64,000 nucleotides of DNA from contig NC_014640.1 of the NCBI RefSeq assembly GCF_000165835.1, positions 2,480,001 through 2,544,000 of the forward strand. The letters are read 5' to 3'. The stretch's first letter is position 1, and each line of letters begins with the position of its first letter. Under the pieces are notes generated by a model, which was given only the letters and a program-made list of their open reading frames with translations, had not been told where the DNA came from and searched no databases. Source of the stretch: Achromobacter xylosoxidans A8. Its GTDB lineage: Bacteria; Pseudomonadota; Gammaproteobacteria; Burkholderiales; Burkholderiaceae_B. A program made the translations under genes and the position numbers. Of this stretch, positions 39,178-61,895 are shown piece by piece.

Positions 39178-40401
39178 ATGCCTGCTCGATCAGAACCCGC
39201 CGACCCCGCATCCCCTGGCCCGATGCCCAGATCGTTGGTGATGCTGCTGGCGGTCGCCTGCGCCCTGAGCGTGGCGAACGTGTATTACGCCCAGCCCCTG
39301 CTGGACGCCATCGGCCGCGAGTTCGGTATCGCCGAAGGCGCGGTGGGCATCGTGGTCACGGCCACGCAGTTGGGCTGCGCGCTGGCGCTGCTGTTGGTGG
39401 TGCCGCTGGGCGACCTGCTGGACCGGCGGCGCCTGATGCTGGGGCAATTGGCATTGCTGGTGCTGTCTTTGGTGGCGGTGGCGCTGTCGGCCGGTACGCC
39501 CTGGTTGCTGATGGGCATGGTGGCGCTGGGCCTCTTGGGGACCGCGATGACGCAGGGTCTTCTGGCCCTGTCCGCGGCGCTGGCCGCGCCGGGCGAGCGC
39601 GGCCGCGTGGTCGGCGCGGCGCAGGGCGGGGTAGTGATCGGCCTGCTGCTGGCGCGCACGCTGGCCGGGGCCGTGGCGGACCTGTGGGGCTGGCGCGCGG
39701 TCTACGTAGTGTCGGCGGCGCTGGCCGCCGTGCTGGCCGTGGTGCTGGCGCGGCGCCTGCCGCAACGCCGGCTGCCCGCGGTGGAGATGGGCTATTGGGC
39801 TTTGCTGCGCTCGCTCTACGGCCTGCTGGCCACCGAGCGCGTACTGCGCGTGCGCGGCATGATCGCGCTGCTGATGTTCGCCGCCTTCAGCGCCTTCTGG
39901 ACCGCGCTGGTGCTGCCCCTGAGCGCGCCGCCGCATTCCCTCACGCACAGCGCGGTGGGCGCGTTCGGGCTGGTGGGTGTGGCGGGCGTGCTGATGGCGG
40001 CGCGCGCCGGCCGGCTGGCGGACAGCGGGCAGGGCGAGCGGACCACGGCCGTGGGGTTGACGCTGCTATGCCTGGCCTGGGTGCCGATCGCCTTTCTGGA
40101 TCAGAGCCTGTGGCTGCTGGCGTTGGGCGTGCTGGTCCTGGATATCGCTTTGCAGGCGCTGCACGTGACTAACCAGACCATGATCTTCAGCGTGAATCCG
40201 CAGGCGCATAGTCGATTGGTCGGGGGCTACATGATGTTCTACGCGGTGGGGAGCGGGTTGGGGTCTATCGCTTCGACTGCGGTTTATGCTCAGGCGGGCT
40301 GGTTGGGGGTGTGCTTGTTGGGGGCGGGTATCAGTGTTGTGGCGCTGGCGTTCTGGGCGGTGACGTTGCCGCGTGGTGAGCGTTTGGCTGTTGGTTCTTA
40401 G
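39178..40401 (+). CDS. MFS transporter, probable drug or metabolite efflux
   Basis: A 407-residue major-facilitator protein with 12 predicted helices. ALSVANVYYAQPLLDAIGRE opens the first helix. The loop 2-3 motif is PLGDLLDRRRLMLGQ. The fold is closest to DHA1-type efflux proteins. The ATG at 39178 is chosen over a TTG four codons upstream because GGAG is correctly spaced. It is probably repressed by the divergent HxlR protein. In its last ~60 codons 7 of 8 leucines are TTG, against CTG earlier. This change coincides with the composite repeat that begins 70 bp after the stop. Confidence 0.9.
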   Translation: MPARSEPADPASPGPMPRSLVMLLAVACALSVANVYYAQPLLDAIGREFGIAEGAVGIVVTATQLGCALALLLVVPLGDLLDRRRLMLGQLALLVLSLVAVALSAGTPWLLMGMVALGLLGTAMTQGLLALSAALAAPGERGRVVGAAQGGVVIGLLLARTLAGAVADLWGWRAVYVVSAALAAVLAVVLARRLPQRRLPAVEMGYWALLRSLYGLLATERVLRVRGMIALLMFAAFSAFWTALVLPLSAPPHSLTHSAVGAFGLVGVAGVLMAARAGRLADSGQGERTTAVGLTLLCLAWVPIAFLDQSLWLLALGVLVLDIALQALHVTNQTMIFSVNPQAHSRLVGGYMMFYAVGSGLGSIASTAVYAQAGWLGVCLLGAGISVVALAFWAVTLPRGERLAVGS

Positions 40402-40537
40402 GATGCTTGTCGTGGGGTTCTTTAGACGCCTGTCGCGTCGTGGGCTCGCTGGTTGAATCTTCACGGCCGCTGGGGCGGGTGGTGTGCTTGGCGTTTTGGC
40501 CACGGTCGGTGGGGTGTTGGCGTGTCTTGCGGGGCCC

Positions 40538-40572
40538 GCCCCAGGCCGGCCGCCCGGGCGGCCTCTTGGGGC
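40538..40572. repeat. GC-rich hairpin of composite repeat 1
   Basis: GCCCCA (40538-40543) pairs with TGGGGC (40567-40572) outside a perfect 16-bp palindrome at 40548-40563. In copy 2 the outer pair reads GCTCCC/GGGAGC: both sides changed together, which keeps the stem. No T-tract follows on either strand. Confidence 0.8.
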
Positions 40573-40737
40573 TTACGCGGCGTCTTGCGTCGCGCGATGG
40601 CGCTGCGCGCTGGTGGTGGGGGCGTTCTCGTGGTAACGCGTGCAGCAGATGTGGGTCTGAATTTGGTTAGGCGCTGCGGTCGGGGCGATGGCGAAAGGCA
40701 CGGGTCGCCAGCAATCGTCATTTCAACGCGGGTGCCG

Positions 40738-40798
40738 GATGGGTGGCGCGCGTCCGGATCTGCATGCGCAAGCGGCTATTCGCCGCGCGCCACCCATC
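40738..40798. repeat. 15-bp inverted repeat within composite repeat 1
   Basis: GATGGGTGGCGCGCG (40738-40752) pairs perfectly with CGCGCGCCACCCATC (40784-40798) around a 31-base loop. The corresponding stretch in copy 2 is shorter and lacks this stem, so this is a copy-specific part. Confidence 0.8.
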
Positions 40799-40890
40799 AC
40801 CGCCTATTCCCCCATGAGCTGGGGAGCAATAACAAATCAGTCATCGCATTCGCGTAAGCGAACACAATAGAAATTCAAGAGATCACGTAT

Positions 40891-40924
40891 GTCATTATCG
40901 GCCGCCCGCGCGGCCGATAATGAC
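40891..40924. repeat. 34-bp palindrome unit of composite repeat 1
   Basis: Fifteen base pairs around a 4-base centre with one mismatched pair. It is followed by GGGCAGC and, further on, the conserved CCCTGACCACGGCT. It aligns with the two perfect 34-bp palindromes in copy 2 (59957-59990 and 60119-60152). The bases outside the central CGGCCG differ from those copies on both sides, so pairing is retained. Confidence 0.85.
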
Positions 40925-40993
40925 GGGCAGCCCAAGCATCGTCCCTGACCACGGCTGCAGCAGCGCTCCAAGCGAAGATTCAAGTAGCTCGTC

Positions 40994-41144
40994 GGCGCGG
41001 GCGCCTGAGTGGCGGGCAACCTCGATGCGCCCGAGGGAATCCGAAGGCAGCCGCCGCAGGCGGCAACGAGGATGACGAAGGGGAAGTCCGGAGCGAACGC
41101 TCCGGACCGCAATCGTGGGCGCCCGCCACTCAGGCGCCCGCGCC
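40994..41144. repeat. branched stem module of composite repeat 1
   Basis: A perfect 24-bp stem (40994-41017 with 41121-41144) encloses 103 bases holding three hairpins. These are CCTCG/CGAGG near 41020, GCCGCC/GGCGGC (41050-41055 with 41059-41064, loop GCA) and GTCCGGAGC/GCTCCGGAC (41086-41094 with 41099-41107, loop GAAC). The same layout, with different stem sequences, occurs at 60222-60371. Confidence 0.88.
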
Positions 41145-41249
41145 GGCGTGCGGCCTACGAAGCACTGGAACGCGACTCCGAAGCCAATCCCCAACGAGAG
41201 CTCAGACGAGACCCTCACGCATGAAGGGCCCGTAATGCACCACAAACAG

Positions 41250-43019
41250 CTACGGCTGCACTTCATACTCCCCAGATCCCAGCACCACCGCCGCAAGCCC
41301 AGGCGCCTGGCTCAGCTTATGCAACGCGTAGCATTGCGCGGTGGCGATCTTGGCGTCGTGGAAGGCCGGGTCTTCCTGGCGCAGGTCCAGGCTGGCCAGC
41401 AGCGCGCGCGCCATCTGCCAGCCGGCAAAGGTGGTGCCCGCCAGCAGCAGATACGGCACGGCCGCGGCAAATACGGCGTTGGGGCGGCTGGCGGCGTTGG
41501 CCAGCACGAAGTCGATGGCGTCGGCCAGGGCCGCGCGGGCCTGGCGCAAAGGCGTCAGCATCAGACGGGCGGCCGGTTCGCTGCGGGCTTCCAGCGCCGC
41601 TTCGGTCTTGCCGACTTCCGCGAGCAGAGCGCGGGCAACCGCGCCACCGTCGCGCAGGGTCTTGCGGCCCACCAGGTCATTGGCCTGGATCGCCGTGGTG
41701 CCTTCGTAGATCGTCAGGATGCGCGCGTCGCGGTAGTACTGCGCCGCCCCGGTTTCCTCGATGAAGCCCATGCCGCCGTGTACCTGCACGCCCAGGCTGG
41801 CCACGTCGATGGACATCTCGGTGCACCAGCCCTTGACGATGGGCACCAGGTATTCCTGCACCGCCAGGTGGCGCTTGCGGGCCTCGGCGTCGGGGTTGGC
41901 GTGCGCCTGGTCGGCATGGCCCGCAGTGTAGTAGGCCAGCGCGCGGCCGGCCTCGGTCAGCGCGCGCATCGTACCCAGCATGCGGCGCACGTCGGGGTGC
42001 TGGATGATGGGCACGGCGTCCTTGGAGGAGCCGTCCACCGGGCGGCTCTGCACGCGCTCGGCGGCATAGGCCAGCGCGTGCTGGTGGGCGCGGTCGGCGA
42101 CGGCGACGCCCTGCACGCCCACGGCGTAGCGGGCGGCATTCATCATGATGAACATGGCGTCCAGGCCGCGGTTCTCCTGGCCCACCAGGTAGCCCAGCGC
42201 GCCGCCCGCGTCGCCGAACTGCAGCGTGCAGGTGGGGCTGGCCTTGATGCCCAGCTTGTGCTCGATCGACACGCAATGGACGTCGTTGCGCGCGCCCAGC
42301 GTGCCGTCTTCGTTCACCAGGAACTTGGGCACCAGGAACAGCGAAATGCCTTTGACGCCTTCGGGCGCGTCGGGCAGGCGCGCCAGCACCAGGTGCAGGA
42401 TGTTCTCGGCCAGGTCGTGCTCGCCGTAGGTGATGAAGATCTTGGTGCCGGAGATGCGGTAGGTGCCGTCGCCCACGGGCTGCGCGCGCGAACGCACCAT
42501 GGCCAGGTCCGAGCCCGCCTGCGGCTCGGTCAGGTTCATGGTGCCGGTCCAGCGTCCGGAAATCATGGGCTCGATGAAGCGCTGCTTCAGTTCAGGCGAA
42601 CCGGCAGTCAGCAGCGCCTCGATCGCGCCGTTGGTCAGCAGCGGGCATAGCGCGAACGACAGATTGGCGGCGTTCAGCATTTCGGAGCAGGGCGAGCCGA
42701 TCAGGCCCGGCAGGCCCTGGCCGCCGTATTCCACCGGATGCGTCATGCCCTGCCAGCCGGCTTCGGCGTACAGGTTGAACGCCTGCTTGAAGCCCGGCGA
42801 GGTGGTGACGGCGCCATCGCGCCAGGAACTGGGCTCGCGGTCGGCGGGGTGGTTCAGCGGGGCCAGCACGTCGGCGGTGTAGCGGGCGGATTCCTCCAGC
42901 ACGGCCTGGGTGGTGTCGGGCGTGGCTTCCTCGAAACCGGGCAGCGCGGCGACTTGCGGCAGGCCGGCAAGATGGTTCAGCACGAACAGCATGTCTTTCA
43001 CGGGGGCTTGGTACGTCAT
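41250..43019 (-). CDS. acyl-CoA dehydrogenase, ~590-residue type (DmdC-like)
   Basis: A 589-residue acyl-CoA dehydrogenase of the longer class. It has an N-terminal helical extension (DMLFVLNHLAGLP), the FAD-binding MNLTEPQAGSDLA, KIFITYGEHDLAENI, YEGTTAIQANDLVGRK, and a C-terminal ~120-residue helical domain. The start at 43019 is supported by AGGAG upstream; an in-frame extension into the ligase gene is not coding. It oxidises an acyl-CoA with electron-transferring flavoprotein as acceptor. The acyl-CoA ligase just upstream on the same strand should supply its substrate. Confidence 0.92.
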   Translation of the reverse strand: MTYQAPVKDMLFVLNHLAGLPQVAALPGFEEATPDTTQAVLEESARYTADVLAPLNHPADREPSSWRDGAVTTSPGFKQAFNLYAEAGWQGMTHPVEYGGQGLPGLIGSPCSEMLNAANLSFALCPLLTNGAIEALLTAGSPELKQRFIEPMISGRWTGTMNLTEPQAGSDLAMVRSRAQPVGDGTYRISGTKIFITYGEHDLAENILHLVLARLPDAPEGVKGISLFLVPKFLVNEDGTLGARNDVHCVSIEHKLGIKASPTCTLQFGDAGGALGYLVGQENRGLDAMFIMMNAARYAVGVQGVAVADRAHQHALAYAAERVQSRPVDGSSKDAVPIIQHPDVRRMLGTMRALTEAGRALAYYTAGHADQAHANPDAEARKRHLAVQEYLVPIVKGWCTEMSIDVASLGVQVHGGMGFIEETGAAQYYRDARILTIYEGTTAIQANDLVGRKTLRDGGAVARALLAEVGKTEAALEARSEPAARLMLTPLRQARAALADAIDFVLANAASRPNAVFAAAVPYLLLAGTTFAGWQMARALLASLDLRQEDPAFHDAKIATAQCYALHKLSQAPGLAAVVLGSGEYEVQP

Positions 43020-59362: not shown

Positions 59363-59658
59363 TGCAGTCCGAGGACGGCTTCTTCGCGTCATTGGGCGGC
59401 ATGCTGGGCGAGGCGCTGCGCAGCGTCGTCGCCGGGCTGAAGTGGCTGCTGGGCGGCGTAGGCAGCGCGCTGGGCGACTTCTACGCGGGCCTGTCGGGCG
59501 CGATGGGGATGAGTCCGTCGGTGTTCAATCTGGTGGTGTTGGCTATTGGGTTGATGCTGCTTTGGGCGGCGGTCAAGGCGTTGTTGAGGCGGAGTTTGTT
59601 GGGGGTTTTGGTTTGGGGGTTTTTGGCGGTGTTGGTGTTGGGCGGGTTGATTAATTGA
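59362..59658 (+). CDS. small membrane protein coupled to the LysE-type exporter
   Basis: A 98-residue protein: an amphipathic N-terminus (ASLGGMLGEALRSVVAGLKW) and two C-terminal hydrophobic segments (VFNLVVLAIGLMLLWAAV, GVLVWGFLAVLVLGGLI). The start codon shares one base with the preceding stop (TGATG). In the last 46 codons 11 of 14 leucines are TTG, whereas the exporter gene uses mainly CTG. The coding strand becomes G+T-rich just before composite repeat 2, so the 3' part may have drifted or been acquired with the repeat. Function unknown. Confidence 0.65.
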   Translation: MQSEDGFFASLGGMLGEALRSVVAGLKWLLGGVGSALGDFYAGLSGAMGMSPSVFNLVVLAIGLMLLWAAVKALLRRSLLGVLVWGFLAVLVLGGLIN

Positions 59659-59788
59659 TGGGTTTTGTTGTGTTGCGGTTTGCGGGTGTTTTTCTGCTTT
59701 AGGCGCCAGCCGCGGCGTGGGCCTGGGGCGGGCGGTGTGCTTGGCGTGCTTGCCATCGGTGGGGTGTGGCGAAGGTCTTGCGGGGCCC

Positions 59789-59823
59789 GCTCCCGGCCGG
59801 CCGCGCGGGCGGCCTTTGGGAGC
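59789..59823. repeat. GC-rich hairpin of composite repeat 2
   Basis: GCTCCC (59789-59794) pairs with GGGAGC (59818-59823) around a 16-base near-palindrome (59799-59814). The same position in copy 1 pairs GCCCCA with TGGGGC. The double-sided change argues that the stem, not the sequence, is kept. Confidence 0.8.
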
Positions 59824-59956
59824 TTACGCGGTGTCTTGCGGCGAGTGATGGCGCTGCGCGCTGTTTGTCACCGGTTCCTTAAAAGAGGCGGTGCATGGGC
59901 AGACGATGCGCCGTATTCGCGTAGCGAGCACTATAGGAATTTTATAAATCGCGTAT

Positions 59957-59990
59957 GTATTAATCGGCCGCCCGGGCGGCCGATTAATAC
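59957..59990. repeat. perfect 34-bp palindrome, unit 1 of composite repeat 2
   Basis: A perfect palindrome: GTATTAATCGGCCGCCC followed by its reverse complement. It is preceded by AATCGC and followed by GGGCAGC. It lies 162 bp before the second perfect palindrome. Confidence 0.9.
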
Positions 59991-60118
59991 GGGCAGCGCA
60001 CGACTCGCCCCTGACCACGGCTCCAGCGGCACTACAAGCCAAGACAATGGCAGCCCGATTGATGCGCTGTCGCGGCCTTCGCGCAGCGAACACTATCGAG
60101 ATTTTATGAATCGCGTAT

Positions 60119-60152
60119 GTATTAGTCGGCCGCCCGGGCGGCCGACTAATAC
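60119..60152. repeat. perfect 34-bp palindrome, unit 2 of composite repeat 2
   Basis: A perfect palindrome: GTATTAGTCGGCCGCCC followed by its reverse complement. It differs from unit 1 by an A-to-G on the left arm and the matching T-to-C on the right arm, a compensated base-pair change. Flanks match unit 1 closely. Confidence 0.9.
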
Positions 60153-60221
60153 GGGCAGCCCACGACTCGTCCCTGACCACGGCTCTAGCAGCGCAGCAAG
60201 CCAAGACAGCGGCAGCCCAGC

Positions 60222-60371
60222 GGCGCGGGCGGCGAGGCGGCTCGCAACCTCGATGCGCCCGAGGGAATCCGTAGGAGTCGCCGAAGGCGAGGACGAGGAT
60301 GACGACGGGGCAGTCCGGAGCGAAGGCTCCGGACCGCAATCGTGGGCGCGAGCCGCCTCGCCGCCCGCGCC
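60222..60371. repeat. branched stem module of composite repeat 2
   Basis: A perfect 24-bp stem (60222-60245 with 60348-60371) encloses 102 bases. Internal hairpins are CCTCG/CGAGG, TCGCC/GGCGA (60278-60282 with 60286-60290, loop GAA) and GTCCGGAGC/GCTCCGGAC (60313-60321 with 60326-60334, loop GAAG). The layout equals that of 40994-41144, but the distal halves of the outer stem and the second hairpin have different, still complementary, sequences. Confidence 0.88.
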
Positions 60372-60422
60372 GATGGGCGACCTACGAAGTGCTGCGGTAG
60401 CGGCCTAGAATCGCTGGCTGAC

Positions 60423-61895
60423 CTACGAAGCCTGCCGCGCCGCCAGCACCACCTTCCGTAACCTCTGCACCAACGCCGGAAACCGCTCGGCCCCCGTATT
60501 CCCATACCCGATCACCAGCCCGTTATCTTCCGCCCGCGCCGCTACCGCGAATGACGACAACGCGCCCGGATTCATGCCGATCTTGCGCGCCTCCTCCACG
60601 ATCTCGCGGTCGGGATACGCCGCAGGCAGCCGCACCGTCAGATGCAGCCCGGAATGTCCGCCCAGCACCTCGTGTTCGATCCCCAGATGCGCCGCCAGCG
60701 CCTCGCGCAACGCTCCCTGGCGTTCGCGGTACAGGCGCCGCATGCGGCCCAGGTGGCGCGAGAACTGGCCGTTTTCCATGAAGGCGGCCATGGTCAGCTG
60801 TTCCAGCCGGTGGCCGCCGCGCAGCATCTCGATGATGGACGGCATTGCCTGCGCGGCGATGGCTTCGGGCAGCACCACGAAACCCAGGCGCAGCGCCGGG
60901 AACATGGTTTTGCTGAACGTGCCCACGTAGAGCACCGGCGCGTCTTCGACCAGGCCCTGCATCGCGGCTATCGGTTCGCCTTGATGGCGGAATTCGCTGT
61001 CGTAGTCGTCTTCGATGATCCAGGCGCCGGCCTGGCGGGCGCGTTCGATCAGGCCCAGGCGGCGCGGCAGGGACAGCACCGCACCGGTGGGGTACTGGTG
61101 CGACGGCGTGGTCTGGATGAGGCGGGGCGGACGTTCCTGCCAGGCGCTTTCGGGGATCACGATGCCGTCCGCGTCCACGCGCATGGCCACCACGTCCAGG
61201 TCGCCGCCGTGGAAGGCCGATTTGGCGCCGCGGTAGCCGGGGTCTTCCAGCCAGGCGGTGTCGCCGGGATTGGTCAGGAGCTGCACGCAGAGCGCCAGCG
61301 CGCCCTGGGCGCCTTCGGTGATGACGATGCGCGAGGCGTCGCAGCGCACGCCGCGGGACACGCGCAGGTACTGGGCGATGGCTTCGCGCAGGGCGGGCTC
61401 GCCCACGGGATGGCCATAGCCCAGCGCGGTGGCCGGGGCGGCTTGCAATGCGCGGTCCTGGGCGCGGCGCCAGGCATTGATGGGGAACTGCGTCAGCGCC
61501 GGCGTGCCGGGCGTCATGGGCAGCGAGCCGTCGTGGGCGTAGCGCGTGGAGACGATGCGCGTCAGCCGCTTGGCCGTGAGGGTAGGCTGCGCGGTGGGCG
61601 GGGCCGCGCGTTTGGCGGCGATGGCCGCGGCGGCCGACAGGGGGGCTACCCGCGTGCCCTGGCGGTCGGCGATCACGTAGCCTTCGGCCGTGAGCTGTTC
61701 GTAGGCGATCAGCACCGTGTTGCGCGAGATGTCCAGGTCCTCGGACAGGGCGCGCGACGAGGGCAGCTTGCCGCCCGCGGGCAACTGGCCTGCCAGGATG
61801 GCCTGCTTGAGGCGCTGGATCAGTTGGCGTTGGCGCGGCAGGGCGCCGGGGCCGCGCGTGAGCGGGCTGGAAAGCAGGGCGGTGGTGGCGGTCAT
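60423..61895 (-). CDS. MocR-type regulator (GntR helix-turn-helix fused to aminotransferase fold)
   Basis: A 490-residue protein. The N-terminal GntR-type winged helix (LIQRLKQAILAGQLPAGGKL, SRALSEDLDISRNTVLIAYE) joins a PLP-binding class-I aminotransferase fold (TEGAQGALALCVQLL, IIEDDYDSEFR, GTFSKTMFPALRLGF with the PLP lysine). Such MocR regulators sense PLP or amino compounds. The ATG at 61895 starts the GntR region; upstream extension is not family-like. It is divergent from the GNAT gene, with a dyad in between. Confidence 0.92.
   Translation of the reverse strand: MTATTALLSSPLTRGPGALPRQRQLIQRLKQAILAGQLPAGGKLPSSRALSEDLDISRNTVLIAYEQLTAEGYVIADRQGTRVAPLSAAAAIAAKRAAPPTAQPTLTAKRLTRIVSTRYAHDGSLPMTPGTPALTQFPINAWRRAQDRALQAAPATALGYGHPVGEPALREAIAQYLRVSRGVRCDASRIVITEGAQGALALCVQLLTNPGDTAWLEDPGYRGAKSAFHGGDLDVVAMRVDADGIVIPESAWQERPPRLIQTTPSHQYPTGAVLSLPRRLGLIERARQAGAWIIEDDYDSEFRHQGEPIAAMQGLVEDAPVLYVGTFSKTMFPALRLGFVVLPEAIAAQAMPSIIEMLRGGHRLEQLTMAAFMENGQFSRHLGRMRRLYRERQGALREALAAHLGIEHEVLGGHSGLHLTVRLPAAYPDREIVEEARKIGMNPGALSSFAVAARAEDNGLVIGYGNTGAERFPALVQRLRKVVLAARQAS

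What the first reader, a model, noticed from the sequence alone, without database searches (positions are those of the whole stretch)
40470..41166. Modular structured repeat shared by two convergent gene junctions (copy 1; copy 2 at 59723-60390)
The two gaps share three blocks in fixed order: a GC-rich hairpin, a 34-bp palindrome unit (one here, two tandem in copy 2), and a branched module. Each copy sits between the 3' ends of convergent genes. There is no transposase, and the shared sequence is concentrated at stems and their flanks. This fits an uncharacterised family of structured intergenic elements, possibly a bidirectional transcription end point, a nucleoid-protein binding site or a structured RNA.
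Basis: partly seen in the sequence, partly recalled or inferred. Interest (0 to 1): 0.85.

Follow-up and report, generated by a model that had tools for sequence, protein, structure and literature searches.

The report
Paired RNA-like hairpins between convergent genes
This bacterium carries about two dozen copies of an apparently undescribed DNA element, mostly where two genes run into each other, and its conserved branched hairpin, aimed at the neighbouring gene, looks like a one-way stop for runaway transcription, although that function is inferred and not shown.

Summary
The window holds two damaged copies of a dispersed intergenic element: 23 loci with at least 28 branched modules (B) in this genome, and relatives in two more genera of its family. 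Where both ends survive (six loci) the order is B(-)–GC hairpin–(palindrome)–B(+), both B strands pointing outward; the window copies lost the left B. B is a three-way junction: a locus-specific stem of about 36 pairs kept by compensatory change, a stem with tandem G·A motifs, and a third hairpin. Covariation is strong within the genus and in the other two genera. In the outer stem G·U, not A·C, is tolerated on the B strand. No Rfam family matches. Sixteen of 23 loci lie between convergent genes, none between divergent ones. New here: genes facing B are depleted of C on their sense strand (four-fold sites, C 0.48 to 0.09), fading over several hundred bases; the bias follows B's strand rather than gene direction. 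Best explanation, inferred: a read-through barrier; B folds only in RNA that has crossed the element and stops it, probably with Rho, before it runs antisense into the opposite gene. No RNA data were available.

The parts
40415..40466 (-). relic of the left B module of copy 1 (outer arm sequence only, core missing)
   Evidence: Orthologous junctions L259, L260, L262 and L264 hold a B(-) core here (sequences).
40470..40625 (+). H block, GC-rich hairpin (palindrome GGCCGCCCGGGCGGCC)
   Evidence: 22 matches in the genome at E <= 0.001, including short self-palindrome hits; palindrome.
40738..40798 (.). V hairpin (15-bp perfect arms, 31-nt loop), in copy 1 only of the two window copies; its stem motif occurs at the same junction in relatives without the element
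   Evidence: I4; V hits in L266; read by eye in L266 and L269.
40845..40978 (+). P block with palindrome 40891-40924
40985..41155 (+). B module (right, R type): three-way junction; basal arms 40987-41026 / 41112-41151; the B strand points towards the acyl-CoA dehydrogenase 3' end
   Evidence: (41008-41133, 137.6 bits).
59701..59733 (-). relic of the left B module of copy 2, lost by a deletion that looks like slippage between short direct repeats (CTGGGGCG-like)
   Evidence: Orthologue L290 keeps the B core; sequences (event 1), repeats read by eye.
59723..59863 (+). H block of copy 2
59909..60056 (+). P block unit 1, palindrome 59957-59990
60071..60218 (+). P block unit 2 (tandem copy, 86%), palindrome 60119-60152
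60215..60378 (+). B module (right) of copy 2
   Evidence: 60236-60360, 130.6 bits.
40101..40401 (+). 3' part of the MFS gene with the composition footprint (C>T on the sense strand)
   Evidence: C>T 7/30, G>A 0/53 in the last 150 nt and C>T 5/38, G>A 1/47 in the 150 nt before, against 9 orthologues without the element.
41250..41400 (-). 3' part of the acyl-CoA dehydrogenase gene with a weak footprint
   Evidence: On the + strand G>A 3/40, C>T 1/42; sense-strand four-fold sites C6 G18 T3, but several element-free orthologues also have C6-9.
59509..59658 (+). 3' part of the 98-aa ORF with the strongest footprint
   Evidence: C>T 13/33, G>A 0/46.
60423..60573 (-). 3' part of the GntR/aminotransferase regulator gene with the footprint
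   Evidence: On the + strand G>A 6/35, C>T 2/40; four-fold sites C2 G27 against C6-15 in element-free orthologues.

Best explanation
An intergenic element built as a two-way barrier between converging genes. Shown: (1) the fullest elements carry the same branched module B at both ends, inverted, each B strand pointing outward at a neighbouring gene, usually at its 3' end; (2) B keeps its pairing through compensatory change, and G·U is tolerated on that strand, as if it folds as a single strand in that sense. Inferred: RNA polymerase that runs through from one gene first copies rc(B) and the central hairpins, and only at the far edge copies B in its folding sense. B then folds in the RNA just before the transcript would enter the opposite gene antisense. 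The RNA around B is C-rich and G-poor, as Rho loading sites are (recalled). I therefore propose that B plus its flanks pause and release RNA polymerase with Rho, so each B shields the gene it faces from antisense read-through.
For: Context: 16 of 23 loci convergent, 7 codirectional, 0 divergent, against 66 convergent and 65 divergent of 392 background gene pairs. In 20 regions I chose from two other genera: 13 convergent (in one, L379, the neighbour is an inserted transposase), 6 codirectional, 1 open, 0 divergent. Direction: 147 of 184 B modules face a gene 3' end; inverted outward pairs occur in three genera. Structure: covariation 0.268 against 0.069 shuffled and 0.454 against 0.110 in the other genera (that alignment leans to the model). 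One P2 pair is T-A 92, C-G 64, G-C 25 of 181, always Watson-Crick. In the outer stem, G·U 155 against A·C 16 on the B strand (36:7 in 52 representatives). Composition: on the B strand, C>G around B. In three relatives' centres palindromes lie near A- and T-runs (L382, L384, L392, read by eye), as in a two-way terminator.
Against: No transcript, 3'-end or Rho data. B has no U-tract (read by eye); the scan of window copy 1 finds one terminator-like site against 0.6 expected and no promoter, and the scan of relative L382 finds none at its central palindromes. The footprint runs several hundred bases into translated genes, and for genes facing B with their 5' end it is a plateau, not a gradient; a Rho site does not need that. 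Paired changes in stems can also come from template-switch correction of imperfect palindromes (recalled). Thirty-seven of 184 B modules face gene 5' ends. B has been lost by deletion at several loci, so it is not indispensable at a site. In the two other genera, mismatches over the whole structure include A·C 23 and G·U 15, so the strand test is clean only in the outer stem.
Confidence: 0.42

Rival explanations
1. Selfish, non-autonomous interspersed repeat (BIME/REPIN/MITE-like). The folded single strand is the substrate of a mobilising or repair activity; convergent junctions are where it does least harm. Copies exchange their cores by gene conversion.
For: Whole elements are present or absent at orthologous junctions (present in 7 of 30 and 4 of 30 loci examined). 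B caps look exchanged: only 12 of 100 orthologous pairs (paired by similarity of the outward 200 bp) share the cap, against 5% of non-orthologous pairs, although basal arms are 79% alike against 54%. Mosaic make-up (B-H units, P-B units, full elements).
Against: No REP-type (Y1) transposase in the genome. No called gene inside the 21 loci; the only transposase seen is an IS256-type (Transposase_mut) one inserted into copies of one other genome. No clean target duplication could be read. A plain repeat does not need a directional footprint.
Confidence: 0.3
2. DNA-level site (cruciform, gyrase/topoisomerase or nucleoid-protein target) that relieves positive supercoiling between converging genes.
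For: Convergent placement; perfect palindromes P and long stems. P stays palindromic while its arms change (L099, L100, L107, L117). Precedent: E. coli BIME-2 binds gyrase (statement seen in a passage of PMC2817692).
Against: The outer stem of B tolerates G·U but not A·C on one strand (155:16), and tandem G·A motifs are kept on the same strand; a double-stranded site would not care which strand.
Confidence: 0.12
3. B is the body of a small RNA or a 3'-end module whose product acts in trans; the many copies are a gene family.
For: Conserved core between locus-specific stems; stable fold (-129.9 kcal/mol, z -10.5).
Against: No promoter-like site in copy 1. The complementary strand folds almost as well (-119.4, z -9.6). 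Position and direction relative to neighbouring genes are kept, as for a cis element.
Confidence: 0.08
4. About the footprint only (compatible with any of the above): it is mutational, not selected. The strand opposite B is left single-stranded (R-loops at a polymerase stalled by rc(B), or resected ends) and loses C by deamination.
For: C>T dominates and G>A is absent close to the element (13/33 against 0/46 at site 2). T rises only near B, G further out (four-fold sites), as expected if new T is later replaced in a GC-rich genome. It reaches far beyond any terminator.
Against: It follows B and not the direction of the neighbouring gene and is reversed in sense terms on the B-less side (64 genes, mean skew +0.25), which neither model predicts simply. 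G>T is also raised (5/53).
Confidence: 0.5

Closest known systems
Bacterial interspersed mosaic elements (BIME) and REP sequences of enterobacteria and pseudomonads
   Same: Dispersed, intergenic, mosaic of palindromic modules in alternating orientation, mostly between codirectional and convergent genes; G-T pairs in stems; reported to help Rho-dependent termination (passages seen in PMC3733652 and PMC2817692).
   Different: REP units are short (stems 5-13 bp, PMC3733652 Table 1 as shown) with a GTAG or CGTC tag and, for GTAG, a RAYT transposase. B is about 130-170 nt with a stem of about 36 pairs, a three-way junction and tandem G·A motifs; no such tag is conserved and no Y1 transposase is in the genome.
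Intrinsic bidirectional terminators between convergent genes
   Same: Position; GC-rich palindromes at the centre; in one related genus A/T-runs lie near them (read).
   Different: The window copy lacks U-tracts at its hairpins and the element is several hundred bases long; the B modules have no place in that model.
Rho-dependent terminators (rut, C>G RNA; features recalled)
   Same: C-rich, G-poor RNA around B.
   Different: The skew is far longer than a rut site and lies in translated genes; a conserved branched RNA is not a defining part.
Structured RNA motifs collected in Rfam 15
   Same: Covarying helices, conserved core with G·A motifs.
   Different: No Rfam family matches at gathering score in the window or in five related loci; the best weak hit on B is a chance-level microRNA model (E 0.07).

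Membership tests
REP / REPIN | short palindrome, stem 5-13 bp, tagged GTAG or CGTC | tested here: not met
   Stem about 36 Watson-Crick pairs (6501 over 182 modules); only AGC is near-invariant at the base, GTAG is not (alignment A1).
REP / REPIN | RAYT (Y1) transposase in the genome | tested here: not met
   PF01797 absent in the own genome; the search rings in 5 of 14 control genomes.
BIME (as a descriptive class) | mosaic of palindromic and linking modules, several combinations, intergenic | tested here: met
   B-H, H-P-B and B-H-P-B arrangements; all 23 loci intergenic by my gene calls.
BIME (as a descriptive class) | built from REP units | tested here: not met
   As above.
MITE / insertion sequence | terminal inverted repeats | tested here: met
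   B(-)...B(+) at the ends of six loci of this genome, but L and R types differ in sequence.
MITE / insertion sequence | target-site duplication | tested here: inconclusive
   Filled and empty sites differ too much in the flanks to align to the base.
MITE / insertion sequence | autonomous partner with the same ends | tested here: inconclusive
   No called gene inside the loci looked at, except an IS256-type element inserted into copies of genome G109; not an exhaustive search.
Intrinsic terminator | GC stem followed by a U-tract | tested here: not met
   Window copy 1: one site against 0.6 expected; L382: two sites, both outside the central palindromes, against 0.9 expected; no U-run after B in the listed sequences.
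Rho-dependent terminator | C>G composition of the RNA | tested here: met
   B-strand C>G around B.
Rho-dependent terminator | termination lost on Rho inhibition | not testable with these tools
   Needs RNA data.
Known structured RNA family | match at a curated Rfam cut-off | tested here: not met

The most novel reading that the evidence does not exclude
B is the first member of a class of directional RNA insulators: a conserved three-way-junction RNA, set in opposed pairs at the edges of convergent gene junctions, that recognises and stops transcripts which have crossed the boundary. Its long-term activity (or the single-strandedness it causes) is recorded as a strand-specific composition gradient in the genes it faces.
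Probability: 0.25. Interest if true: 0.9.

Novelty: new variant of a known kind. Interest (0 to 1): 0.72.

Why it matters
How convergent bacterial genes avoid running into each other without strong intrinsic terminators is open, above all in GC-rich genomes. This element gives about two dozen natural copies in one genome, with element-bearing and element-free orthologous junctions, single- and double-B versions, and a clear direction, so the question can be tested directly by 3'-end mapping. The footprint is a separate surprise: synonymous sites of ordinary genes shift base composition several-fold according to which way a neighbouring hairpin points. It would be a new RNA-structure family for Rfam in any case.

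Tried and rejected
Rejected: coding function (frames of up to 247 aa run through the gaps, but my codon-usage caller takes none of them); phage or plasmid origin (no match in plasmids, phages or viral contigs); known RNA family; RAYT-driven REP; the left edge as a separate module (it is a B relic); transcription of the neighbouring gene as the sole cause of the footprint (the sign follows B, not gene direction; the plateau stays unexplained).

Weak points kept in view. Modules come from overlapping sets of fetched loci (183 to 217 distinct modules where stated) and were found with a core pattern that itself fixes GGAATC-G-AGG and nearly all of the P3 hairpin. So divergent copies are missed, the constancy of P3 and of the middle G·A motif in alignments A1 and A2 is partly forced, and orthologues are not independent. 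A check with a pattern free of P3 is. Gene calls are from my own codon-usage caller, trained on 20 stretches of this genome plus the window and, for other genera, on the 20 fetched regions; some neighbours score low. One search's strand test (227:84) included fixed internal-loop positions; the cleaner count is. Dropped rows: one module with adapter sequence (L152); modules with an extra hairpin (core over 73 nt) from A1 and A2, which use 48 and 38 of 183; modules with under 500 bp of outward flank; genes over 250 bp away, over 450 bp away or weakly called, short genes. Target duplications, an autonomous element and the names of the two other genera could not be settled. Enrichment near the origin may only follow the core genome.

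Full report
WHAT IS IN THE WINDOW. The two gaps (40402-41249 and 59659-60422) share H, P and B in the same order. P is one 34-bp palindrome in copy 1 and two in a tandem 148-nt repeat in copy 2. B is a long stem whose arms are 88% and 90% complementary within each copy but differ between copies. Copy 1 has an extra hairpin (40738-40798). The flanking genes converge.

COPIES IN THE GENOME. The window is 2,480,001-2,544,000 of a 7.01-Mb contig whose first gene is dnaA, followed by dnaN and gyrB. A B query has 28 places at E <= 7e-19 (40 of 150 candidates scored, so a lower bound). H and P have fewer. I grouped them into 23 loci; 22 have a B, one (5,773,327-5,773,626) has P only. Six loci have B at both ends, inverted, each B strand reading outward (574885-575757, 621956-622851, 2105072-2105893, 6533094-6533964, 6630752-6631618, 6655779-6656558; about 780-900 bp, with H next to the left B). 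A P palindrome with perfect arms of 15 lies in four of these six, with different arm sequences that stay palindromic; a fifth has a weaker P match. Shorter forms are B-H and P-B. The window copies are missing the left B. The copy-2 orthologue L290 keeps it, and the alignment looks like a deletion between short direct repeats that left one arm. The copy-1 orthologues L259, L260, L262 and L264 also keep a left B core.

DISTRIBUTION. A B query matches 37 of 61 genomes: all 37 of the own genus (own genome included; G003 only at E 4e-4) and none of 24 others. A covariance model built on 38 of 183 modules finds B in 13 of 151 genomes of the family, in 3 of 43 genera, and in 2 of 200 genomes across the order, both of the own genus. 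No match in viral contigs, plasmids or phages.

STRUCTURE. Stem P1 is locus-specific: 5' arms of 52 representatives are on average 52% alike, yet 87% of positions pair, against 61% when arms are swapped between modules. P2 holds tandem G·A motifs around covarying pairs: the lower motif is GA/GA in 139 of 181 and the upper in 158 of 181; the middle one is fixed by my search pattern. One pair is T-A 92, C-G 64, G-C 25 of 181; another is G-C 154, C-G 23, other 4. P3 was largely fixed by the pattern too. With a pattern free of P3, 123 of 145 modules have the exact P3 hairpin, and most of the variants printed change both sides and stay paired. In the other genera P3 changes on both sides (C-G 11, G-C 11, U-A 8, G-U 1 at one pair). 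Over the whole structure, double-sided changes are 173 against a shuffled mean of 51.7 (at most 45 when slid), and 230 against 74.4 (at most 52 when slid) in the other genera (the second alignment leans to the model). In the outer stem the B strand has 155 G·U and 16 A·C mismatches (36 and 7 in representatives), so the B strand is the one that appears selected to fold, as RNA or possibly as single-stranded DNA. Over the whole structure in the other genera the count is 15 G·U and 23 A·C, loops included; in the eight outermost pairs it is 9 G·U cells and 3 non-standard cells (read). Copy 1 folds at -129.9 kcal/mol (z -10.5), its complement at -119.4 (z -9.6).

GENE CONTEXT. All 23 loci are intergenic by my gene calls: 16 convergent (14 of 21 plus both window copies), 7 codirectional, 0 divergent. 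Background in the same genome: 66 convergent, 65 divergent and 261 codirectional of 392 gene pairs; of 138 gaps of at least 100 bp, 13 are convergent. In 20 regions chosen from the two other genera: 13 convergent (one of them, L379, counts an inserted transposase as neighbour), 6 codirectional, 1 open, 0 divergent. Of 184 B modules, 147 face a gene 3' end and 37 a 5' end.

GAIN AND LOSS. At the copy-1 junction, 7 of 30 orthologous loci examined (of 41 genomes with a match) hold the element; at the copy-2 junction 4 of 30 do. At copy 2, eleven element-free loci have the same 297-nt left ORF; ten of these have 0-45 bp between the genes and one 176. Others have a different left neighbour. In other genomes junctions of the same kind hold unrelated repeats: GTGTCAGACACC palindromes (six loci), or hairpins with the copy-1 extra stem. 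Within B, orthologues (paired by similarity of the outward 200 bp) keep P1 (79% against 54% for non-orthologues), but only 12 of 100 pairs share the P2 cap (5% for non-orthologues). I read this as frequent exchange of cores between loci; fast cap turnover is the alternative.

THE FOOTPRINT. Orthologues without the element serve as the reference state. In the last 150 nt of the left gene of copy 2, C became T at 13 of 33 conserved C and G became A at 0 of 46; on the right side the mirror image is weaker (G>A 6/35, C>T 2/40). Over 162 genes facing a B with their 3' end, four-fold sites go from C 0.45, G 0.49, T 0.04 (1-2 kb away) to C 0.09, G 0.56, T 0.33 next to B; G is highest, 0.69, at 180-240 bp. 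Ninety-six convergent genes without B show no such change (C 0.43, G 0.48, T 0.04); the genome background is C 0.48, G 0.44, T 0.05. Mean C/G skew is -0.50 (159 genes) against +0.01 in 240 controls. Genes facing B with their 5' end are C-rich on the sense strand (36 genes, +0.31 against +0.04), but as a plateau over the gene. Genes on the B-less side of single-B elements, whose sense strand is the B strand, are C-rich too (64 genes, mean +0.25, sd 0.38). Some of these 64 go the other way; one (L001) is the window copy 1 with its lost left B, the rest I did not check. One gene can be compared between states. In its last 150 nt, facing a detected B: C 1-3, G 15-22 (4 genomes). No element: C 14-17, G 6-13 (4). 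B-less side: C 16-17, G 6-7 (2); there the shift is clearer 300-600 nt in (C 46-47, G 15-16, against C 37-40, G 20-26). Three more genomes with no B core detected have C 2, 4 and 9; the first is cut by a contig end, the second shows a B relic by eye. At the copy-1 right gene the contrast is weak. The same flank asymmetry is seen in both other genera (21 and 10 flanks). So the strand opposite B is poor in C on both sides of B, whatever the gene direction.

MECHANISM. I favour a two-way read-through barrier. A transcript from the left gene copies rc(B-left), the centre, and then B-right in its folding sense just before the right gene; the right gene's transcript does the same with B-left. B can fold only in RNA that has crossed the element. 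The C-rich, G-poor RNA on either side is what Rho favours (recalled). REPs have been reported to help Rho-dependent termination (passage seen). Shown: pairing, opposed outward placement, convergent enrichment, strand of folding, composition. Inferred: that B is transcribed, that it stops polymerase, and that Rho takes part. The footprint may be the trace of selection on that RNA or of single-strandedness opposite B; its length favours the latter, its reversal on the B-less side does not decide.

NOVELTY. Searches of the held papers for Achromobacter intergenic repeats, REP/RAYT, structured RNA at convergent genes, BIME with Bordetella, Rho with antisense and convergent genes, Achromobacter small RNAs, bidirectional terminators, and strand asymmetry with R-loops listed no title or abstract start that describes it. 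Only those listings were seen, plus passages of PMC3733652 and PMC2817692; subscription papers are mostly not held. It works like a BIME or terminator but fails defining tests of REP, intrinsic terminators and Rfam families.

Noticed in passing
G000 chromosome (7.01 Mb, dnaA at base 1): No element locus between 2.61 and 5.53 Mb; distances from the origin are shorter than uniform (KS p 0.004, 23 loci). Six G109 loci show the same tendency (p 0.08), if that contig also starts at its origin, which was not checked.
   Followed up: partly
L376, L377, L378, L379, L381 (genome G109): An IS256-type (Transposase_mut) element of about 1.38 kb, over 99% identical between L376, L377 and L378, has inserted into several of the B-framed elements, as some IS do into REPs.
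   Followed up: partly
L324-L326, L339, L341, L342: A different palindromic repeat (GTGTCAGACACC) fills the same junctions in other genomes of the genus.
   Followed up: no
window 40738-40798; L266, L269, L327, L343: A third hairpin family (ATGGGT-GGCGCGCG-type stem, read by eye) at such junctions, once nested in the B element of copy 1.
   Followed up: no
L321 near position 1400: Tandem array of the B-edge repeat GCAGAGCGGCCTACGAA next to the right edge.
   Followed up: no
G003 (same genus, 4.9 Mb): The one same-genus genome of the family sample with no model hit and only one weak DNA match; possibly a lineage that lost the family.
   Followed up: no
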